NCBI RefSeq assembly: GCF_030167915.1
Contig: NZ_JARGNB010000001.1
Location: 124,001-188,000 of the forward strand
DNA from: Aquabacterium humicola
Lineage (GTDB): Bacteria > Pseudomonadota > Gammaproteobacteria > Burkholderiales > Burkholderiaceae_C
DNA length: 64,000 nt
Direction of reading: 5' to 3'
Both the position numbers and the translations under genes were made by a program. Below the pieces are notes generated by a model. The model was not told the DNA's origin. It was given only the letters and a program-made list of their open reading frames with translations, and did no database searches. Positions 30,554 through 43,775 of the stretch are shown piece after piece; the stretch's first letter is position 1; every line of letters starts with the position of its first letter.

Positions 30554-30868
30554 ATGAAAACCGTTCCCGTCCGTTCGCTGCGCCATGCCCGCGTTGCCGC
30601 GCTCGCCGGCGCCCTGACGCTGCCGCTCGCCGGTGCCTTGTCCGCGCTGCCGTCGGCCGCGATGGCCGCCGACGTCAACAAGGGCATCGAGCAGGCCCTG
30701 GCCGCCGCGCAGGAGAGCAAGAAGGGCATCTATGTGTACGTCGGCGGCCAGCAGATCGGCGGCGCGGTCGTGAAGATCGAGGCCGGCCAGTGGGTCGAGC
30801 TGCGCAGCCAGCAGTACAGCCGCATCGTGCTGCGCCTGGACCGCATCGACGGCGTCGCGATGCCCTGA
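30554..30868 (+). CDS. small exported protein of unknown function, beta-rich
   Basis: 104 residues. A clear signal peptide (Arg-rich start, hydrophobic core, AMA-AD cleavage near 38) leaves a mature protein of about 66 residues. The mature part begins with a short amphipathic helix and then alternates as short beta strands (GIYVYVGGQQIGG, VVKIEAGQWVEL, YSRIVLRLDRIDGV). This pattern resembles a small barrel of SH3/Sm type, but that is only an impression. GAAGAGG lies upstream of the ATG. Not recognised; neighbours give no hint. Confidence 0.7.
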   Translation: MKTVPVRSLRHARVAALAGALTLPLAGALSALPSAAMAADVNKGIEQALAAAQESKKGIYVYVGGQQIGGAVVKIEAGQWVELRSQQYSRIVLRLDRIDGVAMP

Positions 30869-30963
30869 TTCGCGGGGGCACCCCCTGTCCGGGGCGGGGC
30901 GATTGCGCCACAGGCCGCACTCGGCCCGATGGCGGGGGCGGGGGAGTTGCTCTAGAAAGCGGG

Positions 30964-32001
30964 ATGGCCGCAGCCGTTCCGCCTGAGTCCCGCTTCGCGC
31001 CCGAGCCTTCGGCCGACGAGCTGGAGGCGGTGCTCGCCGACCGGCGCTTCGTCTCGCTGTTCGAGACGCGCGAGCCCGAGCATGCCGAGGCCTTCCTGTC
31101 GCGCGTCTACGGTCCGCATGCGCTGACGCTGGGCGGCGGCGGCCACACGCTGAACATGCGCCTGCGGGCCTTCGAGTTCGCGCACCTGCACCTGGGCGAG
31201 GTGCGCTACGGGCAGCCGGCCGTGGCCAGCATGTCGCAGGCGCATGGCCACTGGGTGTTCTCGTACCTGCGCAGCGGCAGCGTCGCCACCGACGTGCAGC
31301 CGCGCCCCTACGTGCCGGGCGAAGCGGCGGTGATGGCGCCCGACAGCGTGCAGCAGCTGCGCATGTCCGCCGACATGGAGATGCGCAACCTGCGCGTCGG
31401 CCAGTCCGAGATGCTGGCCGCGTGCCGGTCGCTGCTCGGTTCCGACCTCGCGCATCCGTTGCGCTTCGACGAACGCGTGCCCGCCCACAGCCCGCAGACC
31501 GCCGCGCTGCTGCGCGTGATGACGCACCTGGCGGCCACGCCCGCCTACGCACTGGCCGCCGCCAGCCGGCTCGAAGGCAGCCTGCGCGACGCGGCGCTGT
31601 TCGAGATCCTGCTGGCCTGGCCCAACAACTACGCGCACCACCTCGAGCAGCCGGCGGCGCTGCCGCTGAGCACGCGGCGCGCGCGCGACTACATCCATGC
31701 CCACGCGGCCGAGCTGCCGTCGATCGGCGACATCGCGGCGGCCGCCGGCGTCGGCGTGCGCGCGCTGGCGCGCGGCTTCGAGAAGCACCTGGGCGTGTCG
31801 CCGCAGCGCTACCTGCAGCAGTACCGCCTCGACCGCGTGCACGAGGCGCTGCTGGCGCCCGGCGGCGAGACCACCGTCACCGAGGTCGCGGTGCAGTGGG
31901 GCTTCCTGCAGCTGGGCAGCTTCGCCGCACGCTACCGCGAGCGCTTCGGAGAATCGCCCAGCCAGACGCTGCGGCGCTCGCCGCTGATCCCGCCGGGCTG
32001 A
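30964..32001 (+). CDS. AraC-family transcriptional regulator
   Basis: 345 residues. The N-terminal part is a cupin-like AraC binding domain; the C-terminal 100 residues carry the two helix-turn-helix motifs (SIGDIAAAAGVGVRALARGF and VTEVAVQWGFLQLGSFAARY) and end in GESPSQTLRR. Effector and targets are unknown; no catabolic operon lies beside it. The start at 30964 is the first ATG before the conserved region, with a GGGGGAG run about 17 nt upstream. Confidence 0.9.
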   Translation: MAAAVPPESRFAPEPSADELEAVLADRRFVSLFETREPEHAEAFLSRVYGPHALTLGGGGHTLNMRLRAFEFAHLHLGEVRYGQPAVASMSQAHGHWVFSYLRSGSVATDVQPRPYVPGEAAVMAPDSVQQLRMSADMEMRNLRVGQSEMLAACRSLLGSDLAHPLRFDERVPAHSPQTAALLRVMTHLAATPAYALAAASRLEGSLRDAALFEILLAWPNNYAHHLEQPAALPLSTRRARDYIHAHAAELPSIGDIAAAAGVGVRALARGFEKHLGVSPQRYLQQYRLDRVHEALLAPGGETTVTEVAVQWGFLQLGSFAARYRERFGESPSQTLRRSPLIPPG

Positions 32002-32190: not shown

Positions 32191-33630
32191 TTGAGTACCC
32201 GCCCGCTCGTCGTCGACCTCGACGGCACCCTGATCCACACCGACATGCTGCACGAGTCGGCCCTCAGGGTGCTGCGCGACAAGCCCTGGGACACGCTGTA
32301 CATCCCGGTGTGGCTCGCCGGCGGCAAGGCGCTGCTGAAGCAGCGCCTGGCCCTGCGGTCGAGCTTCGACCCGGCGGGCCTGCCCTACAACCTCGATTTC
32401 CTCGCCTGGCTGCGCGAGCAGCGCGCGGGCGGCCGCACGCTGGTGCTGTGCACCGCGGCCGACGCGTCGATCGCCGAGGCGATCGCGCAGCACCTGGGCC
32501 TGTTCGACGAGGTCATCGCCAGCGACGGCCGCACCAACCTGTCCGGCCGCCACAAGGCCGACGCGCTGGCCGCGCGCTACGGCGCACGGGGCTTCGACTA
32601 CGCCGGCAACTCGCGGGCGGACCTGCCGGTGTGGGAACGGGCGCACGGCGCGGTGGTGGTCAATGCGTCCGCCGCGCTGGCGCGCCAGGCGCGCACGCTG
32701 TGCGAGGTCGAGCGCATCTTCCCGCCGCCGCGCGTGGGCTTCACCGGCTGGCGCCGCGCATTGCGGCTGCACCAGTGGCTGAAGAACCTGCTGCTGTTCG
32801 TGCCGCTGGCGGCCGGCCACCGCTTCGACGACGCCGGCGCCTGGCTGCGGCTGCTGCTGGCCTTCTTCGCCTTCAGCCTGTGTGCATCGGCGGTCTACGT
32901 GGCCAACGACCTGATGGACCTGGAGAGCGACCGCCGGCATCCGCGCAAGCGCGAGCGTGGCTTCGCGTCGGGCCACATCCCCGTGTGGCGCGGCGTCGTG
33001 CTGGCGCCCGTGCTGCTGGCCGGCGGCTTCGCGCTGGCGGCGCAGGTGTCGCAGGCCTTTCTCGGCTGGATGGGGCTGTACTTCCTGGCGACCTGCGCCT
33101 ACTCATGGGGCCTGAAGCGCATCGTGCTGGTCGACTGCCTGCTGCTGGCCATGCTGTACACGCTGCGCATCGTCGCCGGCACCGCGGCGGCGCAACTGCA
33201 GTTCTCGTTCTGGCTGCTGGCGTTCTCGGTGTTCCTGTTCCTGTCGCTGGCCTTCGTCAAGCGTTATGCCGAGCTCGCGCTGCAGGCGGGCGCCGGGGTC
33301 GAGGCGCCGCACGGGCGCGGCTACCGCAGCAGCGATTCGCCGCTGCTGCAGACCATGGGCGTGACCTCGGGCTACGCCGCGGTGCTGGTGCTGGCGCTGT
33401 ACATCAACAGCGCCTCGGTGCAGTACCTGTACCGCGCGCCGGAGCTGGTGTGGGGCACGCTGCCGCTGGTGCTGTTCTGGATCAGCCGCATGTGGATGAA
33501 GGCCCACCGCGGCCAGATGCACGACGACCCGCTCGTCTTCGCCGTCAAGGACGTGCCCAGCCTGATCGCCGGCCTGCTGTTCGGCGGCGTGCTGGCGCTG
33601 GGCGCCGTCGGGTGGCCATGGTCGGCCTGA
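32191..33630 (+). CDS. HAD phosphatase - UbiA prenyltransferase fusion (polyprenyl-phosphate ribose synthase type)
   Basis: 479 residues. The first 180 are a HAD-superfamily phosphatase with the nucleophile motif VVDLDGTL (Asp9, Asp11). The rest is a multispanning UbiA-type prenyltransferase with the polyprenyl-phosphate/Mg motif N239-D-x2-D (NDLMDLESDRRHPRKR). The UbiA part resembles DPPR synthases, which put 5-phosphoribose from PRPP on polyprenyl phosphate; the HAD part could then remove the 5-phosphate. Both are steps of the mycobacterial decaprenylphosphoryl-arabinose pathway, and the next two genes encode the following epimerisation. It starts at TTG, preceded by AAGGAAGG. Overlaps the next gene by 13 nt. 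Confidence 0.85.
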   Translation: MSTRPLVVDLDGTLIHTDMLHESALRVLRDKPWDTLYIPVWLAGGKALLKQRLALRSSFDPAGLPYNLDFLAWLREQRAGGRTLVLCTAADASIAEAIAQHLGLFDEVIASDGRTNLSGRHKADALAARYGARGFDYAGNSRADLPVWERAHGAVVVNASAALARQARTLCEVERIFPPPRVGFTGWRRALRLHQWLKNLLLFVPLAAGHRFDDAGAWLRLLLAFFAFSLCASAVYVANDLMDLESDRRHPRKRERGFASGHIPVWRGVVLAPVLLAGGFALAAQVSQAFLGWMGLYFLATCAYSWGLKRIVLVDCLLLAMLYTLRIVAGTAAAQLQFSFWLLAFSVFLFLSLAFVKRYAELALQAGAGVEAPHGRGYRSSDSPLLQTMGVTSGYAAVLVLALYINSASVQYLYRAPELVWGTLPLVLFWISRMWMKAHRGQMHDDPLVFAVKDVPSLIAGLLFGGVLALGAVGWPWSA

Positions 33631-34934
33631 CCGCCTGGGGTCGGCTCGGCACGTGGAACCATGACGTGCTCGAACTGGACCACGCGCAGCCGCTGCCGGC
33701 GCAGATCGCCGCGCGCCTGCCGGGCATCGCGCACGGCATGGGCCGCAGCTACGGCGATGTCGCGCTGAACCCGGGCGGCCATGCCTGGAAGACCACCGGC
33801 CTCGACCGCTTCCTGCAGTTCGACGAGGCCAGCGGCCGCCTGCGCTGCGAGGCCGGCGTGCTGCTGCGCGACATCCAGCGCCTGATGGTGCCGCGCGGCT
33901 GGTCGCTGCCGGTGGTGCCGGGCACGCAGTGGGTCACCGTCGGCGGCGCGATCGCCAACGACGTGCATGGCAAGAACCACCACCGTTTCGGCAGCTTCGG
34001 CGACCACGTCGCCCGCATGCGCCTGCTGCGCACCGATGGCGAGCTGATCGACTGCGGCCCCGCGCTGCGGCCGGAGTGGTTCGCCGCCACCGTCGGCGGC
34101 CTCGGGCTCACCGGCCTGATCACTGAGGCCGAGCTGCAGCTCAAGCGCCAGGCCGGCCCCTGGCTCGACGCCGAGACGCTGCCCTTCGCCGGGCTGGACG
34201 CGTTCTTCGCGCTGGCGCAATCGTCCGAAGCGGACTGGGAGCACACCGTCGCCTGGATCGACTGCCTGTCCTTCGCTCGCGGCGGGGCCCCGGGCCGCGG
34301 GCTCTTCATGCGCGCGAACGCCGCCGCGGCGGGCGCGGGCGATGGCGCGCGCGCACCGCGCGAGCGCCAGTGGTCGGTGCCCGCGGCACCACCGGTCTCG
34401 CTGGTCAACCGCTGGTCGCTGCGGCCCTTCAATGCCGCCTACTTCGCGCTGAACAAGTCGCGCACCGGGCGGCGCACCGTGCACAGCGAACCCTTCTTCT
34501 ACCCGCTCGACGGCGTGCAGCACTGGAACCGCCTGTACGGACCGCGCGGCTTCTACCAGTACCAGTGCGTGGTGCCGCCGCGCGAGGCAGCGGCCGCGAC
34601 CGCCGCGCTGCTGGCCGAGATCGCGCGCGCCAACAGCGGCTCGTTCCTCGCGGTGCTGAAGACCTTCGGCGAGCGCGCCGGTCCCGGCCTGCTGAGCTTC
34701 GCACGGCCCGGCACGACGCTGGCGCTGGACTTTCCGAACGACGGCGCATCGACACTGCAGCTCTTCGAACGGCTCGACGCGATCCTGCGCGAGTCCGGCG
34801 GCGCGATCTACCCGGCCAAGGACGCGCGCATGCCGCGCGACCTGTTCGAGGCGGGTTATCCGCGCCATGCCGATTTCCGGGCCTTCCGCGACCCCGGCAT
34901 CGAGTCGGCCTTCTTCCGTCGCGTGATGGCATGA
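33618..34934 (+). CDS. dprE1: decaprenylphosphoryl-ribose 2'-oxidase-like flavoenzyme (DprE1 family)
   Basis: 438 residues, close to mycobacterial DprE1 (461). The FAD-binding domain has GMGRSYGD (40-47) and HGKNHH (His117, the flavin-contacting histidine). The substrate domain has FFYPLDGVQHWNRLYGP and YPAKDAR with Lys401 matching the catalytic Lys418. Predicted to oxidise the 2'-OH of polyprenyl-phospho-ribose to the keto form. The residue aligned with mycobacterial Cys387, the covalent benzothiazinone target, is Ala369. Starts at ATG 33618 inside the end of the UbiA gene (GTG at 33612 is an alternative). Ends in a 4-nt ATGA overlap with dprE2. Confidence 0.88.
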   Translation: MVGLTAWGRLGTWNHDVLELDHAQPLPAQIAARLPGIAHGMGRSYGDVALNPGGHAWKTTGLDRFLQFDEASGRLRCEAGVLLRDIQRLMVPRGWSLPVVPGTQWVTVGGAIANDVHGKNHHRFGSFGDHVARMRLLRTDGELIDCGPALRPEWFAATVGGLGLTGLITEAELQLKRQAGPWLDAETLPFAGLDAFFALAQSSEADWEHTVAWIDCLSFARGGAPGRGLFMRANAAAAGAGDGARAPRERQWSVPAAPPVSLVNRWSLRPFNAAYFALNKSRTGRRTVHSEPFFYPLDGVQHWNRLYGPRGFYQYQCVVPPREAAAATAALLAEIARANSGSFLAVLKTFGERAGPGLLSFARPGTTLALDFPNDGASTLQLFERLDAILRESGGAIYPAKDARMPRDLFEAGYPRHADFRAFRDPGIESAFFRRVMA

Positions 34935-35695
34935 CGATTCCTTCCTCTTCCCCGCGCCGCATCGTGATCGTCGGCGCCACCTCGGCGATCGCCGAGCACT
35001 GCGCGCGCCAATGGCTGGCCGAAGGCCCCTCGACGCTGACGCTGGTCGGCCGCGATGCGGCGCGCACCGAACGCGTGGCCGCCGACCTGCGGGTGCGTTC
35101 GCCGCAATCGGCGATCGACGTGCGCACGACCGATTTCGAAGATCCCCGCGCGATCCAGGCCCTGGCCACGACGCTGGCCGCGACCGGCGCGATCGACATC
35201 GTGCTGATCGCCCACGGCAGCCTGCCGGAGCAGCAGGTGGTGCAGGCCGACCTCGAAGCCAACCGTGCCGCGCTGCAGATCAATGCGGTTTCGCCGGTGC
35301 TCTTCGCCGAAGCCTTCGCCGCGCCGCTGCAGCATTCCGGCCGCGGCACGCTGGCGATCATCGGCTCGGTGGCCGGCGACCGCGGCCGGCGCTCGAACTA
35401 CGTCTACGGCGCCGCCAAGGGCCTGGTCGCGCGATATGCCGAAGGCCTGCAGCACCGCTTCGCCGGCACGGCGGTGCGCGTGGTGCTGGTCAAGCCGGGG
35501 CCGACCGCGACGCCGATGACCGCGCACCTCGCGAACGGCGGACGGGCGCTGGCGCCGGTCGATCGCGTCGCCGCCGACATCGTGCGCGCGGTCGCCCGCG
35601 GCACGCCGGTGTGCTACACGCCGGGCAAGTGGGCGCTGATCATGGGCGTCATCCGGCACCTGCCGCGCGCCGTCTTCAACCGGATGGACATCTGA
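34931..35695 (+). CDS. dprE2: decaprenylphosphoryl-2-keto-pentose reductase-like SDR (DprE2 family)
   Basis: 254 residues. Rossmann motif VIVGATSAIAEHCA at the N terminus, IIGSVAGDRGRRSNYVYGAA with the catalytic Ser, Tyr and Lys (YGAAK), and a C-terminal segment (MGVIRHLPRAVFNRM) that closely follows mycobacterial DprE2. Predicted to reduce the 2-keto intermediate made by DprE1, giving polyprenyl-phospho-arabinose. Overlaps dprE1 by 4 nt and the next gene by 1 nt (TGATG), consistent with translational coupling. Confidence 0.87.
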   Translation: MTIPSSSPRRIVIVGATSAIAEHCARQWLAEGPSTLTLVGRDAARTERVAADLRVRSPQSAIDVRTTDFEDPRAIQALATTLAATGAIDIVLIAHGSLPEQQVVQADLEANRAALQINAVSPVLFAEAFAAPLQHSGRGTLAIIGSVAGDRGRRSNYVYGAAKGLVARYAEGLQHRFAGTAVRVVLVKPGPTATPMTAHLANGGRALAPVDRVAADIVRAVARGTPVCYTPGKWALIMGVIRHLPRAVFNRMDI

Positions 35696-37506
35696 TGGTC
35701 CCCTCGATCGGCGCCGCAGGCGCCCCCACCCTGGCCGCCGGCGCGAATGCCGGCACGCTGCTGCGGCGCGCGGGGGCGCGGCCGTGGCGCCTGGCGATGC
35801 TGCTCTTCGCCGCCGCGATGATCGGTGCCGCGCTGTACGGCGGCGTGCGCTGGTTCACGCCGGTTCCGATCGGCGACGCGTGGGACGGCATCGTCGGCTT
35901 CCGGCTGCACCAGCAGGCGGGGTCCCTGGGCATCTGGTGGGCGCAGCACAACGAACACCGCATCGTGCTGGCGCGACTGTTGTTCTGGCTGGACTTCGAG
36001 CTCTTCGGCGGGTGCACCGTCTTCCTGATCGTCGCGAACTACGCGCTGGTCGTCGCCGCGATCGCGCTCTTCGCGGCGCTGGTGCGCAGCGCCTTCCGGC
36101 GCGACGGCGGCAGCGCGCCGGACGCCGAACGGCTGTTCACCCTGGGGCTGGCCGCCTGGCTGTTCCAGTGGATGCAGTTCGAGAACCTGACGCGGCCCTT
36201 CCAGAGCCAGTTCTTCCTCGCCACGCTGGTGCCGCTGGCCGCGCTGTACTTCCTGTACCGGGCGACCGTGCCGACATCGCCGCGGCGCGACTTCGTGATC
36301 GCCTGCGTGCTCGGCGTCGCCTCGATCGGCACGATGGCCAACGGCGTGCTGGCGCTGCCGCTGATGGTGCTGTACGCCGCGTTGACCCGCCAGGGCTGGC
36401 GGCGCATCGCCGTGCTGGGACTGCTGGCCGCGTTGACGCTGGCCGCGTACTTCCACGGCTATTTCGCGATCCGCGGCCACGGCTCGCTGGGGCAGGCGCT
36501 GCGCGAGCAGCCGCTGGCGCTGGTGCACTACTGGCTCGCCTACGTCGGCGGGCCGTTCCAGAAGCTGGCCGCGATGACGAACCACGGCCGCACCTTGGCC
36601 GTCGTGATGGGCGCGGTCTTCGCGCTGCTGGCGCTGGCCGCCGCGGCGCGCGCGCTGCGCCGCCCGGCGGCGTCGGCGCTGGAGCTGGCGCTGCTGGCCT
36701 TCATCGCCTACTTCTGCGCCACCGCGCTGGCCACGGCCGGCGGGCGCGTCAACTTCGGCATCGAGCAGGCCTTCTCGTCGCGCTACACGACGCCGGCGCT
36801 GATGGCCTGGGGCTGCCTGCTGGTGCTGCATGCGCCAGCGCTGGCACGCTGGTTCGGCGCGCGACCGCGCGCCGCGCTCGCCGCAGGCCTGCTGTTCGCG
36901 CTGCCGATGCTCAACGCGCAGCTGGAGGCGCTGCAGCCGCGTTCGGGCGAGGTGCTGGAGCTCGAATCCGGTGCGCTGGCGCTGGTCCTGCAGGTGCGCG
37001 ACGAACACCAGGTGCTGCACCTCTATCCGGTCTACGAACCGCTGCGGCGCACCGCCGACCACGCCGAGCAGGCGCGGCTGGCGATCTACGGCCAGTTCCC
37101 GTTCGAGCGGCTGCGCGAGCAGCTCGGCCAGCCGGCGCCGGCACGGCCGGTCGCGCAGTGCCGCGGTTTCGTCGATGCGGTGGAAGTGCTCGGCACCGAT
37201 CCGCGCTTCCTGCGCGTCAGTGGCTGGTTGTTCGATCCGGTGAGCCGGTCGGTACCGCGACGCGCGCGCTTCGTCACCGCCGAGGGCCGCACCGCCGGCT
37301 TCGCGCTGACGGGCGGCCCGCGCGAAGATGTCGCGCAGGCCGTCGGCTGGCGTGCACGCGGGGCCGGGTTCCGCGGCTACGTGCTGGTCGACGAACTGGC
37401 GAACCCCCGGGCGAACCAACTGGCAAACCACCCGGCCGGCGCCCCGCTGGTGCTGCAGGACGATGCGGGCGCCTGCCACCTGCCGCTGCAATGGCCCAGG
37501 CCCTGA
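35695..37506 (+). CDS. multispanning membrane protein, candidate GT-C type pentosyltransferase
   Basis: 603 residues. About ten hydrophobic helices in the first 420 residues are followed by a soluble C-terminal domain of about 180. The loop after helix 1 carries Asp61 and Asp64 (PIGDAWDG) and then HNEHR (85-89); acidic residues in this first extracytoplasmic loop are the usual catalytic site of GT-C glycosyltransferases that use polyprenyl-phosphate sugars. The C-terminal domain (VSGWLFDPVSR, then GPREDVAQAVG and AGFRGYVLV) looks like a beta-rich module. Context (after DprE1/DprE2, before GtrA) suggests it transfers the lipid-linked pentose outside the inner membrane. No close named homologue was recognised. 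Overlaps dprE2 by 1 nt. Confidence 0.75.
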   Translation: MVPSIGAAGAPTLAAGANAGTLLRRAGARPWRLAMLLFAAAMIGAALYGGVRWFTPVPIGDAWDGIVGFRLHQQAGSLGIWWAQHNEHRIVLARLLFWLDFELFGGCTVFLIVANYALVVAAIALFAALVRSAFRRDGGSAPDAERLFTLGLAAWLFQWMQFENLTRPFQSQFFLATLVPLAALYFLYRATVPTSPRRDFVIACVLGVASIGTMANGVLALPLMVLYAALTRQGWRRIAVLGLLAALTLAAYFHGYFAIRGHGSLGQALREQPLALVHYWLAYVGGPFQKLAAMTNHGRTLAVVMGAVFALLALAAAARALRRPAASALELALLAFIAYFCATALATAGGRVNFGIEQAFSSRYTTPALMAWGCLLVLHAPALARWFGARPRAALAAGLLFALPMLNAQLEALQPRSGEVLELESGALALVLQVRDEHQVLHLYPVYEPLRRTADHAEQARLAIYGQFPFERLREQLGQPAPARPVAQCRGFVDAVEVLGTDPRFLRVSGWLFDPVSRSVPRRARFVTAEGRTAGFALTGGPREDVAQAVGWRARGAGFRGYVLVDELANPRANQLANHPAGAPLVLQDDAGACHLPLQWPRP

Positions 37507-37510
37507 AGAA

Positions 37511-38479
37511 ATGATGAACTCCGTGATGACCCTCCCGCCGGACCGCGGCACGCGCATCGTGCTGCCGGGCGGTGCCGGCCTCGTCGGCCAGAACCTCGTC
37601 GCACGGCTGCGCGAGCGCGGCTACCGCGACATCGTCGTGCTCGACAAGCACCGCGCCAACCTCGAGGTGCTCAAGCGCCTGCAGCCCGGCGTCACCGCCG
37701 AATACGCCGACCTCGCGTCGCCCGGCGAGTGGCAACGCCACTTCGACGGCGCCGGCGTCTGCGTGATGCTGCAGGCGCAGATCGGCGGTCTGGACTACGC
37801 CGAGTTCGAGCGCAACAACGTCGAATCGACGCGGCTGATCCTCGACGCGGTGCGCCGCCATGCGGTGCCGCGGCTGGTGCACATCAGCTCGTCGGTGGTC
37901 GAGTCGGTGGCCGACGACTTCTACACCCGCAGCAAGCGGGCGCAGGAGGCCCTGGTGCTCGCCAGCGGGCTGCCGTGCCCGATCCTGCGGCCGACGCTGA
38001 TGTTCGGCTGGTTCGACCGCAAGCACCTGGGCTGGCTGGCGCGCTTCATGCGCCGCGTGCCGGTGTTCCCGATCCCCGGCCATGGCCGCTACATGCGCCA
38101 GCCGCTGTACGTCGGCGACTTCTGCAACATCATCATCGCCTGCATCGAGAAGCCGGTGACCAGCGGGATCTTCAACATCTCGGGCCACGAGCGCATCGAC
38201 TACGTCGACATCATCCACGCGATCCGCCGCAGCATCGGTGCGCGCACGCCGATCGTGCACATCCCGTACGGCTTGTTCCACGCGCTGCTGTGGGCCTGGT
38301 CCTGCGTCGACCGCAACCCGCCGTTCACCACGCAGCAGCTGGCGGCGCTGGTCGCGCGCGACGAGTTCGAGGTGATCGACTGGCCGGGCCTGTTCGGCGT
38401 GCGCTGCACGCCGTTCGCCGAAGCGATCGACGAGACCTTCCGCCACCCGCAGTTCGCCGCCGTGGCGCTGGAGTTCTGA
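37511..38479 (+). CDS. NAD-dependent epimerase/dehydratase family protein
   Basis: 322 residues of extended SDR type: NAD-binding GGAGLVG (20-26), and active-site Tyr138 and Lys142 (YTRSK) after a Ser-rich strand (HISSSVVES). Family members epimerise, dehydrate or reduce nucleotide sugars. In this cluster it may make or modify a second sugar or tailor the pentose; the substrate cannot be read from sequence. Begins 4 nt after the membrane protein; ATG codons at 37511 and 37514 are both possible. Its stop overlaps the next ATG by 1 nt. Confidence 0.82.
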   Translation: MMNSVMTLPPDRGTRIVLPGGAGLVGQNLVARLRERGYRDIVVLDKHRANLEVLKRLQPGVTAEYADLASPGEWQRHFDGAGVCVMLQAQIGGLDYAEFERNNVESTRLILDAVRRHAVPRLVHISSSVVESVADDFYTRSKRAQEALVLASGLPCPILRPTLMFGWFDRKHLGWLARFMRRVPVFPIPGHGRYMRQPLYVGDFCNIIIACIEKPVTSGIFNISGHERIDYVDIIHAIRRSIGARTPIVHIPYGLFHALLWAWSCVDRNPPFTTQQLAALVARDEFEVIDWPGLFGVRCTPFAEAIDETFRHPQFAAVALEF

Positions 38480-39831
38480 TGGCGAGCGCTCCCTCGGCCG
38501 GCGGCGGCCAGCGCATCGCCGTGCTCGGCGCCGGCCCGATGGGGCTGGCGGTGGCCTACCAGCTGGTGCGCGACGGTCACCGGCCCGTGCTGTTCGAGGC
38601 CGACGACCGTGTCGGCGGCATGACCGCCACCTTCGACTTCAACGGCCTCGAAATCGAGCGCTACTACCACTTCCACTGCACCTCGGACCACGCGTTCCTC
38701 GAAGTGCTGAAGGAACTGGGCCTGGCCGATCGCATGCGCTGGGTCGCCACGCGCATGGGCTACTGGTACCAGGGCCGCGTGCAGCCGTGGAGCAATCCGG
38801 TCGCGCTGCTGCGCTTCAAGGGCCTGGGCCTGGTGGCGAAGATCCGCTACGCGCTGCACGCGCTGGCCTGTGTCCGCCGCGACGACTGGAAGCCGCTGGA
38901 CCATGTCGAAGCCAGCGCGTGGATCCGGCGCTGGGTCGGCGCCGAGGCCTGGGAGGTGCTGTGGCGGCGCCTATTCGACTACAAGTTCTACGACCAGGCC
39001 CACAACCTGTCGGCGGCGTGGATCTGGAGCCGCATCCGCCGCATCGGGCGCTCGCGCTACAGCCTGATGCGCGAGAAGCTGGGCTACCTGGAAGGCGGCT
39101 CCGCGACCCTGCTGCAGGCCTTGCGCCGGGCGATCGAGGCCGGCGGCGGCGAGCTGCGGCTGAAGTGCCCGGTGCAGCAGGTGGTGCTGGAAGGGGAGGC
39201 AGGCGCCGCGCAGCGCGTGGTCGGCGTGCGCACGGCCGACGGCATCGAGGCCTTCGACCGCGTGATCAGCACCGTGCCGATGCCCATCGTGCCGCGGCTG
39301 CTGCCGCAGCTGCCGGACGCGCTGCTCGCGCGTTATCGCGCGCTGAAGAACATCGCCGTCGTCTGCGTCATCGCCAAGCTCAAGCGCCCGGTCACCGAGA
39401 ACTTCTGGCTCAACACCAACGACCCGGAGATGGACATCCCCGGCCTCGTCGAGTACTCGAACCTGCGGCCGCTGGACCAGCACGTGGTCTACGTGCCGTT
39501 CTACATGCCGGGTGAACATCCGAAGTACCAGGAGCCCGACAGCGTCTTCACCGACAAGGTCAGGCGGTATCTCAAGCGCATCAACCCGGCGCTGCAGGAC
39601 GGCGACTTCATCGACATCCGCGCCAGCCGCTACCGCCATGCGCAGCCGGTGTGCGAGCCCGGGCACCTCGAGCAGTTGCCGCCGGTGCACGGGCCGGTGC
39701 AGGGGCTGTGGGTGGCCGACACCTCGTACTACTACCCCGAGGACCGTGGCATCTCCGAAAGCATCGGCTTCGGCCGCCAGCTCGCGAAGGACGCGGCCAA
39801 CGACACCGTCGGTGGCGCCGACAGACGCTGA
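38479..39831 (+). CDS. FAD/NAD(P)-dependent oxidoreductase (amine oxidase/UDP-galactopyranose mutase-like fold)
   Basis: 450 residues. The N-terminal dinucleotide-binding motif VLGAGPMGLAVAYQL and the following acidic strand end (FEADDRVGG) are typical of amine-oxidase-type FAD proteins. C-terminal part ends with the second FAD contact (GLWVADTSYYYPEDRGI). Relatives include protoporphyrinogen-oxidase-like enzymes and sugar mutases; proteins of this type occur in polysaccharide clusters. Role here unknown: a redox or mutase step on a sugar or on the lipid carrier. 1-nt overlaps on both sides (TGATG) tie it into the operon. Confidence 0.8.
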   Translation: MASAPSAGGGQRIAVLGAGPMGLAVAYQLVRDGHRPVLFEADDRVGGMTATFDFNGLEIERYYHFHCTSDHAFLEVLKELGLADRMRWVATRMGYWYQGRVQPWSNPVALLRFKGLGLVAKIRYALHALACVRRDDWKPLDHVEASAWIRRWVGAEAWEVLWRRLFDYKFYDQAHNLSAAWIWSRIRRIGRSRYSLMREKLGYLEGGSATLLQALRRAIEAGGGELRLKCPVQQVVLEGEAGAAQRVVGVRTADGIEAFDRVISTVPMPIVPRLLPQLPDALLARYRALKNIAVVCVIAKLKRPVTENFWLNTNDPEMDIPGLVEYSNLRPLDQHVVYVPFYMPGEHPKYQEPDSVFTDKVRRYLKRINPALQDGDFIDIRASRYRHAQPVCEPGHLEQLPPVHGPVQGLWVADTSYYYPEDRGISESIGFGRQLAKDAANDTVGGADRR

Positions 39832-40229
39832 TGCGTGCCTTCGCGTCGCGCCAGTTCCTTGCCTTCCTCGTCACCGGCGGCTTCGCGGCGCTGGTGAACT
39901 TCGGCTCGCGCATCGCCTACAGCCAGTGGCTGCCGTTCTCCGGGGCGGTGGTGCTGGCCTACCTCACCGGCATGGTCACCGCCTTCGTGCTGGCGCGGCT
40001 CTTCGTCTTCGGCCCCGGCGCGCAGCCGGTGCACCACGCGGCGGGCAAGTTCGCGCTGGTCAACCTGCTGGCGGTGGCGCAGACCTGGGCGGTGAGCGTC
40101 GGCCTGGCCGACTACGGCCTGCCGGCGCTGGGCGTCACGCGCTTCGTGCACGAGATTGCCCACGGCGTCGGCGTGATCGTGCCGGTGTTCACCAGTTTCC
40201 TCGGCCACAAGCACTGGTCGTTCCGGTGA
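39831..40229 (+). CDS. GtrA-family membrane protein (candidate lipid-linked sugar flippase)
   Basis: 132 residues with four hydrophobic helices and the family features FLVTGGFAALVNFGSR near the start and GHKHWSFR at the very end. GtrA proteins act in translocating polyprenyl-phosphate-linked sugars; a GtrA gene (Rv3789) also sits beside dprE1/dprE2 in Mycobacterium tuberculosis. Last gene of the seven-gene unit; its ATG overlaps the preceding stop by 1 nt. Confidence 0.88.
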   Translation: MRAFASRQFLAFLVTGGFAALVNFGSRIAYSQWLPFSGAVVLAYLTGMVTAFVLARLFVFGPGAQPVHHAAGKFALVNLLAVAQTWAVSVGLADYGLPALGVTRFVHEIAHGVGVIVPVFTSFLGHKHWSFR

Positions 40230-40398: not shown

Positions 40399-42921
40399 AT
40401 GCCCTTCACCGATCCGTTCCTCCAGCTCGAACCTGGCTTGGCCTTCGGCCGGCTCCACGCGACAGAGGATGTCGACTGCTTCCGCGTCGAGCTGGTTCAA
40501 GGTGAGCGCTACTTCGTCGAGCTGATCGCCCACGGCCCGATCGACCTCGCACTGCTCGACGACCACGGCGAAGCGCTCGCCACGGGGGGCAACGCCGTCA
40601 CCGACCGGGGCATGATCCGGTCGTCGCTGTCGTTCGTCGCCCCGGCGAATGGCACGTATGCGCTTCAGGTCACCGGCGGCTCGGCGAACTGGGTGCAGCC
40701 GACGGACTACGCGCTGTCGATCGGGACCACGAATGTCGACGACGTCCCCGACGAGCGCTGGATGGCTCGCCGAATCGAGCTGGGCGGCCATGTCGACGGC
40801 ACGCTCGACCTCTCGCAGGACATCGACTGCTTCGCGCTGGCGCTGGCCGCCGGACAGCGGGTCCAGGTGACGATCCGCCACAGCGCCCCGTTCCCGAACG
40901 AGGACCCGGTCGTGCGCGTGCTCGGCCCCAACGACAACGACGTGCGGGAGATCTCGTCGGGCGCGGTCGGCATCTCCTTCGCCTTCTCCGCGACCAGCGC
41001 CGGCACCTACTTCATCGAGCTGCGCAATGCCGACGGAACCACATCGCCGGGCGACGCCAATGTCCTCAGCTACCACATCGAGACCGCGCTGCTGCCGCCG
41101 GACGACCATGCCGACGGGTACCTCGGCGCGACGTCGATGAAGGTCGGCACCGAGGCCACGGGCCGCATCGAGCTGTCGGGCGATCGCGACTGGTTCCGTG
41201 TCGACCTGGCCTTCGGTCAGCGCTATCGCATCACGCTCGTCGACGACCAGGCGCTCGTCGACAACGACCTCGTCGTCTCGCTCGGTGCCGGCGGATACGA
41301 GCTGGTCCGCTCCGACCCCGACGCCGGGCTCGTGTACCGCGCCATGGGCGGTGGCACCTACTACATCGCCGTCGAAGGCAGCAACGACCTGCAGCGCGCG
41401 ACGTCGCCGGTGGGCTACCGGCTGCGCGTCGAGCCGATCCCCGCCGACGACCGCGCCGATACCCCCGGCGACGCCTCGCTGCTCGCCGTCGGTGGCACGG
41501 CCACGTTCCGCTTCGACGGCGGCAGCGATGTCGACGTGTTCCGCTTCGAGGCCGTGGCCGGCCAGCGTTATGTCGCGGAGATCAAGGGACCGACCGGAAC
41601 GTCAGGCCGGACCGACGCCTTCTTCATCGAGGACGGCGAGCCGGTGCCGACGCACGTTGGCGAGGCGCGCTATCGCGACCTCCAGCCCGCGAGCTCGTGG
41701 TACTTCACGGCAGACACGTCCGGACCCGTTTATCTGGCGCTGCTGCCGCGCACGCTGGATCTGTCGGCCGACTGGCGCGTCGAGCTGCGCGCGGTCGCGC
41801 CCGACGATCACGCCGAGTCCGCCGCTGCCGCCACGCCGCTGGCGCTGGGCTCGCCGCTCACCGGCGCGTTGAGCGGCCCCGGCGACGAGGACTTGTTCGC
41901 CGTGTCGCTCGTCGCCGGACAGGCCTACAGCTTTGCCCTGACGACACCGCTCGACCTGCCCTCGATGTGGTACCCGGATTTCTCGCCCCGGCTCGAAGTG
42001 TCGCTGGCCGGCGGCGCGCAGCCGCTGTTGACGGTCGACGGCCATTGGCCGGCCGGCATGAAAGGTGCACTCTTCTTCGCGCCGGCCGACGGCGTCTACA
42101 TCGTGCGGCCGCGCTTCGTGACGAGCTACACCGTGCAGGTCGAGCACTGGCAACCAGGCGCCGACGACGAAGCCGATCTGCCGGCCAACGGAGAATGGCT
42201 GAATGCCAACACGGGCTTCGAGCCGGCGGGCTTGCCCCTCATCGGCTCCGAGAGCGACGACGTCCTGACCGGCAGTGCAAGGCCGGATTTCATCCAGGCG
42301 GGCGCCGGCAACGATCGCATCGAGAGCCGGCTGGACGGCGACGTCGTCGAGGGCGGCGACGGCATCGACACCCTCGTTGTCGATGCCACGCTGGGTACCA
42401 TGCTCGCCGAGTACGCGGGGGGCCGGTGGACGCTGACAAATCTCAGCGCCGGCGGGGCGGCCTCGCTGACCGCCGTCGAGCGCGTGCAGGGCACCGACGC
42501 CGGCCTCGCGCTCGATCTCGACGGCCACGCCGGCTCGGTGGCCCGTGTGCTCGGCGCACTGTTCGGTCCGCAGGCGGTGGCCGATCGCGCGCTCGTCGGC
42601 CTGGGGCTGTCGCTGCTCGACGCCGGCCTCGACTACCCGACCCTCGTCGCGGCCGCGGTCGACAGCGAGCTCTTCCGGGCGCAAGCCGGCGGGGCGTACT
42701 CCCATGCGGCCTTCGTCGACATCGTCTACCGCCATGTGTTCGGCCACGCGCCGACGGCGGACGAGCGGGCGGCGTATGTCGCGCTGATCGATCAAGGCAG
42801 CGTCACGCAGGCACAGCTGGCGCAGCTGGCCTGCGACTCGGTCTTGAACGCCGCCAACATCGGCCTCGCGGGACTGCAGGACTCCGGGCTCGCCTACCTG
42901 CCTGTCGTAGGGGCCTCATGA
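40399..42921 (+). CDS. large secreted-type protein with five PPC-like repeats, RTX segment and DUF4214-like tail
   Basis: 840 residues, acidic, no signal peptide and no membrane helix. Five repeats each begin with a G/T-rich strand and a D-x-D-x-F core (DVDCFRV, DIDCFAL, DRDWFRV, DVDVFRF, DEDLFAV) joined by DDHAD/DDRAD linkers, like bacterial pre-peptidase C-terminal domains. At about 616-663 an RTX-type calcium segment follows (SDDVLTGSARPDFIQAG, GAGNDRIE). The end (about 765-830) resembles DUF4214 (FVDIVYRHVFGHAPTADERA). The combination suggests type I secretion with a C-terminal signal; no transporter is nearby. 169 nt after the GtrA gene. No protease domain is present. No ribosome binding site is obvious. 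Confidence 0.75.
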   Translation: MPFTDPFLQLEPGLAFGRLHATEDVDCFRVELVQGERYFVELIAHGPIDLALLDDHGEALATGGNAVTDRGMIRSSLSFVAPANGTYALQVTGGSANWVQPTDYALSIGTTNVDDVPDERWMARRIELGGHVDGTLDLSQDIDCFALALAAGQRVQVTIRHSAPFPNEDPVVRVLGPNDNDVREISSGAVGISFAFSATSAGTYFIELRNADGTTSPGDANVLSYHIETALLPPDDHADGYLGATSMKVGTEATGRIELSGDRDWFRVDLAFGQRYRITLVDDQALVDNDLVVSLGAGGYELVRSDPDAGLVYRAMGGGTYYIAVEGSNDLQRATSPVGYRLRVEPIPADDRADTPGDASLLAVGGTATFRFDGGSDVDVFRFEAVAGQRYVAEIKGPTGTSGRTDAFFIEDGEPVPTHVGEARYRDLQPASSWYFTADTSGPVYLALLPRTLDLSADWRVELRAVAPDDHAESAAAATPLALGSPLTGALSGPGDEDLFAVSLVAGQAYSFALTTPLDLPSMWYPDFSPRLEVSLAGGAQPLLTVDGHWPAGMKGALFFAPADGVYIVRPRFVTSYTVQVEHWQPGADDEADLPANGEWLNANTGFEPAGLPLIGSESDDVLTGSARPDFIQAGAGNDRIESRLDGDVVEGGDGIDTLVVDATLGTMLAEYAGGRWTLTNLSAGGAASLTAVERVQGTDAGLALDLDGHAGSVARVLGALFGPQAVADRALVGLGLSLLDAGLDYPTLVAAAVDSELFRAQAGGAYSHAAFVDIVYRHVFGHAPTADERAAYVALIDQGSVTQAQLAQLACDSVLNAANIGLAGLQDSGLAYLPVVGAS

Positions 42922-43013: not shown

Positions 43014-43775
43014 ATGCCCGTCGAACTGTTCCGCCGCAATGGCCATCTGTGCCTGATGTTCAGCGACCTCAGCGGTCCGGGCGAGGAGGCGGTGCAAGCC
43101 AACCAGTTCCTGATCGTCGACGACGACACCGGCGCCATCATCGATCCCGGCGGCAACCTCGCCTATCACGAGTTGTACCTGGGCATGACGCGCTACTTTC
43201 CGCCGAGCCGGCTGTCGGCCATCCTCGCGTCGCACGCCGATCCGGACATCATCGCGTCGCTCGATCGCTGGATGACCGCCACGCCGGCCAAGGTCTACAT
43301 CAGCCGGCTGTGGGAGCGCTTCGCGCCGCACTTCTGCAAGCCGGGCAAGACCGAAGGCCGCATCGTCGGCCTGCCGGACGAGGGGGCCCGCCTTCAAGTG
43401 GGCCAAAGCCCGCTGTGGGCGTTGCCGGCGCACTTCCTGCACGCCGAAGGCAACTTCCACTTCTGGCACCCGGAAGCCGGCATCCTGTTCTCCGGCGACC
43501 TGGGCGTCTCGCTGGGCGTCGACCCGCGCACGGCGGTTCGTTCGCTGGCCGAACAGCTGCCGCACATGGTGCCGTTCCACCGCCGCTACATGGCCAGCGG
43601 CAAGATCCTCCGCCTGTGGGCCCGCATGGTGAAGCCGCTGCCGATCCGGATGATCGTGCCGCAGCACGGCGCACCGCTCGAGGGGCCGGCGGTGAACGAG
43701 TTCATCGAATGGGTGCAGGACCTGGAGTGCGGCATCGACCGCATGAGCCAGGCCGACTACGCCTTGCCGGTGTGA
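43014..43775 (+). CDS. metallo-beta-lactamase-fold protein of the oxygen-binding di-iron (ODP) type
   Basis: 253 residues. Metal-site motifs are present: SHADPDIIAS (H-x-D-x-D), AHFLHAEGNFHFW (His), FSGDLGVS (Asp) and a late PQHG (His). This is the layout of stand-alone flavodiiron-like MBL proteins that bind O2 or act as sensors, lacking the flavodoxin domain. Standing alone between unrelated genes. Possible role in oxygen or NO sensing/reduction; unproven. Start at 43014 has no strong Shine-Dalgarno. Confidence 0.82.
   Translation: MPVELFRRNGHLCLMFSDLSGPGEEAVQANQFLIVDDDTGAIIDPGGNLAYHELYLGMTRYFPPSRLSAILASHADPDIIASLDRWMTATPAKVYISRLWERFAPHFCKPGKTEGRIVGLPDEGARLQVGQSPLWALPAHFLHAEGNFHFWHPEAGILFSGDLGVSLGVDPRTAVRSLAEQLPHMVPFHRRYMASGKILRLWARMVKPLPIRMIVPQHGAPLEGPAVNEFIEWVQDLECGIDRMSQADYALPV

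What the first reader, a model, noticed from the sequence alone, without database searches (positions are those of the whole stretch)
32191..40229. Compact polyprenyl-phosphate arabinose (DPA-type) operon in a Gram-negative chromosome
Seen: seven consecutive overlapping genes with HAD-UbiA, DprE1-like, DprE2-like, multispanning GT-C-like, epimerase, FAD oxidoreductase and GtrA products. Known: in mycobacteria UbiA (Rv3806c), a phosphatase, DprE1 (Rv3790) and DprE2 (Rv3791) make decaprenylphosphoryl-D-arabinose, and a GtrA protein (Rv3789) is encoded beside them; D-arabinofuranose is also known on some Pseudomonas pilins and Azorhizobium Nod factors. Inference: this locus is a self-contained machine that makes, flips and transfers a lipid-linked pentose to an unknown surface acceptor, with two extra enzymes that may produce a modified sugar.
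Basis: partly seen in the sequence, partly recalled or inferred. Interest (0 to 1): 0.82.

Follow-up and report, generated by a model that had tools for sequence, protein, structure and literature searches.

The report
Extended lipid-linked arabinose-type sugar operon
Seven neighbouring genes look like a machine that builds a rare five-carbon sugar on a membrane lipid, flips it across the membrane and attaches it to a surface molecule; two added enzymes, absent from the Pseudomonas arabinose locus it resembles, suggest the final sugar is something other than arabinose.

Summary
In detail: seven tightly packed or overlapping genes lie at 32191-40229 (+). Genes 1-3 are a phosphatase-UbiA fusion, a DprE1-like oxidase and a DprE2-like reductase, the core predicted to turn PRPP into polyprenyl-phosphate-arabinofuranose. 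Gene 4 has no family match but folds like a GT-C glycosyltransferase. Gene 7 is a GtrA protein. This kind of system is in print (Kelly et al. 2024; the Pseudomonas PA7 pilin pathway). Genes 5 (NAD-dependent SDR epimerase) and 6 (PRK07233-type flavoenzyme) go beyond it. All but the transferase form a conserved cassette: of the 80 nearest of 487 relatives of gene 6, 70 carry all six genes, 69 in one order. A Pseudomonas genome that looks like PA7 has the arabinose core but no gene 5 or 6 homologue; of 11 Pseudomonas genomes with a DprE1 homologue, 9 lack both and 2 have both. Gene 6 relatives also sit beside GT2-type lipid-sugar modules (8 of 22 surveyed loci), so this family probably acts on polyprenyl-phosphate sugars in general. 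Best reading: arabinofuranose is modified further, possibly to lyxofuranose, then flipped and moved by an interchangeable GT-C. No chemistry was tested; sugar and acceptor are unknown. A new variant of a known kind.

The parts
32191..33630 (+). g1: fusion of a HAD-type phosphatase (D9 of DLDGT) and a UbiA-type polyprenyl-phosphate phosphoribosyltransferase (N239, D240, D243, D247; K357-R-Y-A-E361)
   Evidence: residues compared with those tested in PMC11127046
33618..34934 (+). g2: DprE1-like FAD oxidase (predicted to oxidise the C2 hydroxyl of polyprenyl-P-ribose)
   Evidence: (solved DprE1, E 1.8e-65)
34931..35695 (+). g3: DprE2-like SDR reductase (GATSAI, Y159-x3-K163)
35695..37506 (+). g4: GT-C-fold membrane protein, 603 aa, predicted glycosyltransferase, with a beta-rich C-terminal part (about residues 485-600); invariant D61, W63, N86-E87-H88, Q161, N164, R351, R363, Y364, T366
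37511..38479 (+). g5: extended SDR of the NAD-dependent epimerase family (GGAGLVG, S126-S128, Y138, K142), extra to the arabinose core
38479..39831 (+). g6: PRK07233-type flavoenzyme of the amine-oxidase / phytoene-desaturase superfamily, extra to the arabinose core
39831..40229 (+). g7: GtrA-family membrane protein, proposed flippase or flippase partner

Best explanation
The operon makes a polyprenyl-phosphate-linked pentose and uses it outside the cytoplasm. [quoted passage not shown] g2 and g3 invert C2 by oxidation and reduction, giving polyprenyl-P-arabinofuranose. g5 and g6 then change this product further: g5 is most likely an NAD-dependent epimerase working on another free hydroxyl (C3 is the simplest choice, which would give D-lyxofuranose), and g6 a flavoenzyme acting on the polyprenyl-P-sugar. 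GtrA helps to flip the donor, and the GT-C protein g4 moves the sugar to a periplasmic acceptor. Shown here: gene content, families, predicted fold of g4 and g6, conservation, co-occurrence, and lack of g5/g6 homologues in a PA7-like genome. Inferred: every reaction, the end sugar, the direction of flipping and the acceptor.
Against: No chemistry. g6 homologues occur in 8 of 22 surveyed loci beside GT2-type modules, without g1-g3 or g5, so g6 need not act on the pentose. L022 has g6 beside g1-g3 but no recognised g5. L118 has g5, g6 and GtrA in a genome without a HAD-UbiA gene, next to NDP-sugar, GT2 and GtrII-type genes, so g5 too can occur outside the pentose route. Outside the nearest relatives the order is looser (L022, L029, L143, L151). 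g2, g3 and the phosphoribosyltransferase part of g1 miss NCBI's curated cut-offs. The r values come from loci picked for g6 similarity; GtrA follows neither group (r 0.23-0.40).
Confidence: 0.62

Rival explanations
1. g6 works on the lipid carrier, not the sugar: it saturates, desaturates or isomerises the polyprenyl chain to give a dedicated carrier, while g5 alone changes the sugar.
Confidence: 0.25
2. The end sugar is plain D-arabinofuranose; g5 and g6 serve another, linked step such as preparing the acceptor.
For: g1-g4 and g7 suffice in principle for the arabinose route described for Pseudomonas and mycobacteria.
Against: In the 80 loci found by g6, g5 is present in 79, while only 31 have a homologue of g4; acceptor-making genes should vary with the transferase. 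The 80 are the nearest of 487, so this says nothing of the rest.
Confidence: 0.18
3. g6 is a ring-size mutase like UDP-galactopyranose mutase, turning the lipid-linked furanose into a pyranose, with g5 then acting on the pyranose.
Against: Phytoene desaturase and protoporphyrinogen oxidases score higher (34.5, about 31); the Pfam scan of g6 gave no mutase-specific family at E <= 1e-3.
Confidence: 0.1
4. The UbiA part is a ubiquinone, heme or other aromatic prenyltransferase and the operon has nothing to do with pentoses.
For: UbiA is a broad family with five members in this genome.
Against: Scores, solved-structure match and residues all point to the phosphoribosyltransferase branch.
Confidence: 0.02

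Closest known systems
Three-component pentofuranose modification systems (Citrobacter youngae O1/O2, Kelly et al. 2024, PMC11127046)
   Same: HAD-UbiA fusion making polyprenyl-P-ribofuranose, epimerase(s) acting on the lipid-linked sugar, a flippase, a periplasmic GT-C transferase
   Different: GtrA instead of a MATE flippase; DprE1/DprE2-like pair plus a second SDR and a flavoenzyme; g4's relation to GT136 untested. The paper mentions unexplained elaborate systems in Xanthomonas and Bacillus, which may include this cassette (its supplement was not seen).
D-arabinofuranose pathway of Pseudomonas PA7 type IV pilins (PSPA7_6245-6251; passages of PMC12369383)
   Different: UbiA without HAD and a separate divergent PAP2 protein; no g5 or g6 homologue found in that genome
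Mycobacterial decaprenyl-phospho-arabinose pathway (Rv3806c, Rv3807c, DprE1, DprE2, Rv3789; gene roles from PMC11127046)
   Same: Order of predicted reactions; homologues of Rv3806c, DprE1 and DprE2, and a GtrA-family protein
   Different: HAD phosphatase fused to UbiA; g2 and g3 below curated cut-offs; the residue aligned with the drug-reactive cysteine of DprE1 (Cys387, recalled) is alanine in the window and 31 sampled sequences; two extra enzymes
GT2 / LPG-synthase-TM / PRK07233 modules (unnamed; loci L144-L150, L162)
   Same: A g6-family flavoenzyme near a GT2 that may make a lipid sugar and a flippase-like protein; four of the eight also have DUF2298 membrane proteins
   Different: GT2-type enzyme in place of UbiA/DprE1/DprE2; no g5 homologue found in these loci

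Membership tests
HAD-UbiA polyprenyl-P phosphoribose synthase (PRP-PPPRS) | PRK08238 profile over curated cut-off, HAD and UbiA parts in one protein | tested here: met
   677.6 bits, cut-off 351; Pfam HAD and UbiA both over cut-off
HAD-UbiA polyprenyl-P phosphoribose synthase (PRP-PPPRS) | Phosphatase nucleophile Asp, N-D-x2-D-x3-D, and R/E of loop IV (D18, N247, D248, D251, D255, R366, E369 of ORF15) | tested here: met
   D9; N239-D240-x2-D243-x3-D247; R358 and E361 in KRYAE (residues). By motif and by the alignment with 8j8j, not by alignment with ORF15 itself
Decaprenyl-phosphate phosphoribosyltransferase (Rv3806c) | NCBIfam equivalog models over their cut-offs | tested here: not met
   156.6, 146.8 and 128.7 bits; cut-offs 234, 207 and 474
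DprE1 (decaprenyl-P-ribose oxidase) | NCBIfam equivalog NF053785 over its cut-off | tested here: not met
   326.9 bits, cut-off 500
DprE1 (decaprenyl-P-ribose oxidase) | Near full-length homology with HGKNHH and the AKD lysine | tested here: met
   Match to solved DprE1 over residues 4-422 of 438; H and K kept in the window and 31 sampled sequences
DprE2 | NCBIfam equivalog NF053786 over its cut-off | tested here: not met
   154.8 bits, cut-off 250
Three-component pentofuranose system (Kelly 2024) | MATE-family flippase | tested here: not met
   None of the seven proteins matches a MATE family at E <= 1e-3; the flippase candidate is GtrA
Three-component pentofuranose system (Kelly 2024) | GT-C-type fold of the transferase | tested here: met
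   VIA ranks 1-39: 37 GT-C transferases or chains of OST-containing complexes, 2 GPI-transamidase chains
Three-component pentofuranose system (Kelly 2024) | GT136 membership of the transferase | not tested
   The founding sequence was not at hand
PRK07233 flavoenzyme family (NF005560) | Profile over curated cut-off | tested here: met
   557.3 bits, cut-off 252; the only match over cut-off in this genome
UDP-galactopyranose mutase | Mutase-specific Pfam family | tested here: not met
   Pfam scan of g6 lists only Amino_oxidase, DAO and NAD_binding_8 at E <= 1e-3
D-arabinofuranose pathway | Arabinofuranose as the end product | not testable with these tools
   Needs chemistry

The most novel reading that the evidence does not exclude
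The cassette makes a lipid-linked pentose not yet seen in a solved bacterial glycan, most simply D-lyxofuranose (C2 inverted by g2/g3, C3 by g5 with or without g6), and PRK07233 proteins are an undescribed class of flavoenzymes that act on polyprenyl-phosphate sugars in both PRPP-derived and nucleotide-sugar-derived systems. Kelly et al. write that lyxofuranose is in no solved carbohydrate structure, perhaps because two centres would have to be inverted; this cassette has genes that could do that.
Probability: 0.2. Interest if true: 0.85.

Novelty: new variant of a known kind. Interest (0 to 1): 0.6.

Why it matters
A conserved six-gene donor cassette, found in alpha- and gammaproteobacteria (the latter in the wide sense that includes Burkholderiales), on plasmids, and in two metagenome-assembled genomes labelled as other phyla (one of them a contig cut before g1), points to a widespread surface sugar of unknown identity. 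It gives a defined test of which pentoses bacteria can make from PRPP, and a first functional frame for a flavoenzyme family for which a search of the held library under its family name found no paper. The partly decoupled inheritance of the arabinose half and the g5/g6 pair, with varying transferases, suggests that bacteria vary surface sugars by swapping modules.

Tried and rejected
Rejected: UbiA as a ubiquinone or heme enzyme. Rejected: neighbouring genes as part of the unit; the AraC-type regulator (30790-32001) and the PPC/RTX protein (40399-42921) had no homologue at E <= 1e-10 in the other loci fetched by then, and base composition does not mark the operon as foreign. Promoter-like and terminator-like sites were no more than in shuffles (0 against 0.4; 2 against 2.6). 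Looking for an ORF13-like xylofuranose epimerase as yardstick: the NGR234 oxidoreductase beside UbiA is only 23% identical to g5 over 254 columns; the C. youngae ORF13 sequence itself was not at hand. A second origin of g6 in pentose loci (L151, a very long branch) was considered and left open. Foldseek alone gave no PDB match at E <= 1e-3 for g4 (best 1.4e-3); the GT-C call rests on VIA. Two of VIA's first 39 rows (8imx_U, 9ub7_B) are GPI-transamidase chains, and three (6ftg_5, 8b6l_I, 9n9j_I) are chains of translocon complexes that I take to be the oligosaccharyltransferase subunit. UDP-galactopyranose mutase is in the g6 lists but below desaturases and oxidases. Paper searches under other terms brought nothing further on the cassette.

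Counts each use one set. The DprE1 residue count used the window and every third of the matching sequences held then (31).
Full report
What is there. Seven genes on the + strand fill 32191-40229 with overlaps of 1 to 13 bases and one gap of 4 bases. Family scans give: g1 HAD + UbiA; g2 FAD_binding_4, nearest named family DprE1; g3 short-chain dehydrogenase with DprE2 second among its NCBIfam matches; g4 no match; g5 NAD-dependent epimerase family; g6 amine-oxidase-like flavoprotein of family PRK07233; g7 GtrA. The genome has 7.39 Mb. A genome placed in its own family (G204) has a locus (L015) that shares contig length and scores with Acidovorax sp. Leaf160 (L127), so the window is probably from a relative of Acidovorax (inference).

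The arabinose core. g1 scores 677.6 bits on PRK08238 and 129-157 bits on three decaprenyl-phosphate phosphoribosyltransferase models (under their cut-offs), against 28-35 bits on the heme and ubiquinone models, and matches the solved mycobacterial enzyme 8j8j. It keeps the motif residues that Kelly et al. tested in ORF15 of C. youngae: the phosphatase Asp, N-D-x2-D-x3-D, and the R and E of loop IV. g2 aligns with solved DprE1 over residues 4-422 and keeps HGKNHH and the AKD lysine. g2 and g3 stay under NCBI's curated cut-offs (326.9 of 500, 154.8 of 250 bits), so I call them DprE1-like and DprE2-like. The residue aligned with the cysteine that benzothiazinone drugs hit in DprE1 (Cys387, recalled) is alanine in the window and in 31 sampled sequences, duplicates not removed.

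A conserved cassette. A scan of 84,980 species genomes with a g6 alignment found 487 relatives; the best 80 were kept. Of these 80 loci, 70 hold all of g1, g2, g3, g5, g6, g7, and 69 of the 70 in that order. g5 is found with g6 in 79 of 80. Of the ten incomplete loci, L062 lacks only a recognised GtrA; L050, L082, L083, L095, L103, L120, L123 and L128 are cut by a contig end on the side of g1-g3, and the genomes of L103 and L123 have a HAD-UbiA match elsewhere, in the second a partial one at a contig end; L118 has no HAD-UbiA gene in its genome. A homologue of g4 is found in 31 of 80. Between g3 and g5 the gap is over 1.2 kb in 40 of 70 loci, under 300 bases in 28, and in between in 2. Many-helix proteins lie in or beside the cassette in most loci, and a cluster of 28 proteins of about 329 aa, mostly close behind GtrA, has as scanned representative a flippase-like LPG_synthase_TM protein. 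So the donor genes are constant and the transferase varies, the logic of the classical gtr systems. The 80 include Pseudomonas, Burkholderia, Variovorax, Paracidovorax, Pantoea, a Manganitrophus MAG and an Anaerolineales MAG. On plasmids, g6 homologues occur in 8 records; among the 30 listed of 51 records with a g5 homologue, those of 50% identity or more are 7, the same 7 that hold g6 at 43% or more. Four of these were viewed with annotation and have the six genes in the same order. Farther out the order loosens: in L029, L143, L151 and L022 genes are rearranged or missing.

What the extra two genes mean. (1) Nesting: in a sample of 300 genomes of the order, 33 have a HAD-UbiA gene over cut-off. 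All 33 loci were examined (the window and L010-L041): 13 have DprE1/DprE2-like genes, 8 have g6, and all 8 are among the 13 (Fisher p 9e-5, no correction for shared ancestry; some loci are short because contigs end). It has UbiA without HAD, a divergent PAP2 protein, DprE1-like, DprE2-like and a PMT_2-type membrane protein. The genome has no g6 homologue at E <= 1e-30 and no g5 homologue at E <= 1e-40. Of 25 genomes of that genus, 11 have a DprE1 homologue at E <= 1e-60, in 12 loci; 10 of the 12 also show UbiA nearby, L172 and L173 do not. Nine of the 11 genomes lack both g5 and g6, 2 have both. Plain arabinose thus does not seem to need them. (3) Mosaic: over the 70 complete loci and the window, pairwise identities of g1, g2 and g3 correlate at 0.91-0.93 and g5 with g6 at 0.66, but between the groups only at 0.38-0.52; GtrA follows neither (0.23-0.40). 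Split at 56% identity of g2 to the window, 45 and 25 loci carry two types of g1-g3 (g2 47% identical between types) but almost the same g5 (69% between types, 73% within the first) and g6 (76%, 79%). The loci were chosen for g6 similarity, which narrows the range of g6, though not directly that of g5.

Comparison with print. Kelly et al. 2024 (PMC11127046: abstract, passages, and sections 7 and 12 read) showed the HAD-UbiA step in C. youngae, found that a single SDR decides between ribofuranose and xylofuranose, and report DprE1/E2 homologues in candidate systems with arabinofuranose. They write that lyxofuranose is in no solved carbohydrate structure, which the need to invert two centres could explain, and that systems with several candidate epimerases or GT-Cs in Xanthomonas and Bacillus warrant investigation. 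The cassette described here may be among those; the supplement was not seen. Searches for papers naming PRK07233 or combining the gene names found none on this cassette.

Verdict. A real, widely conserved and probably mobile variant of a known kind of system. That it makes a lipid-linked pentose for periplasmic transfer I hold at about 0.9; that g5 and g6 make the product differ from plain arabinofuranose, about 0.62; that it is lyxofuranose, about 0.2.

Noticed in passing
window 40399-42921 (+): Directly downstream, an 840-aa protein with PPC domains, an RTX-type calcium-binding repeat and a DUF4214 stretch just under its cut-off; a conceivable acceptor, but without homologues in the other loci fetched by then.
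   Followed up: partly
L144-L150 and L162: A second, recurrent module: GT2 glycosyltransferase, LPG_synthase_TM flippase-like protein and PRK07233 flavoenzyme, in four loci with DUF2298 membrane proteins; its sugar is unknown to me.
   Followed up: partly
L061 15.6-21.3 kb: In a Luteibacter MAG a GT2, nucleotidyltransferase and LPG-TM module with a second PRK07233 gene lies a few kb behind the pentose cassette.
   Followed up: no
L151 6.2-11.4 kb: UbiA, DprE1-like, DprE2-like and g5-like genes with a very diverged flavoenzyme (long branch), perhaps a separate recruitment.
   Followed up: partly
L130 (Burkholderia stagnalis plasmid) 1.3-16.7 kb: The cassette lies behind isonitrile-synthase genes and a sugar-nucleotide-binding-type gene; a link to a natural product is possible.
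   Followed up: no
L163 (NGR234 symbiotic plasmid) 5.9-13.4 kb: HAD-UbiA gene beside an oxidoreductase (23% identical to g5), a large unknown protein, a GMC oxidoreductase and an SMR transporter, with no DprE1/E2 annotated there; perhaps a xylofuranose-like system.
   Followed up: partly
window 43014-43775 (+): ODP-family metallo-beta-lactamase-fold protein between the PPC/RTX gene and a TonB receptor gene.
   Followed up: no
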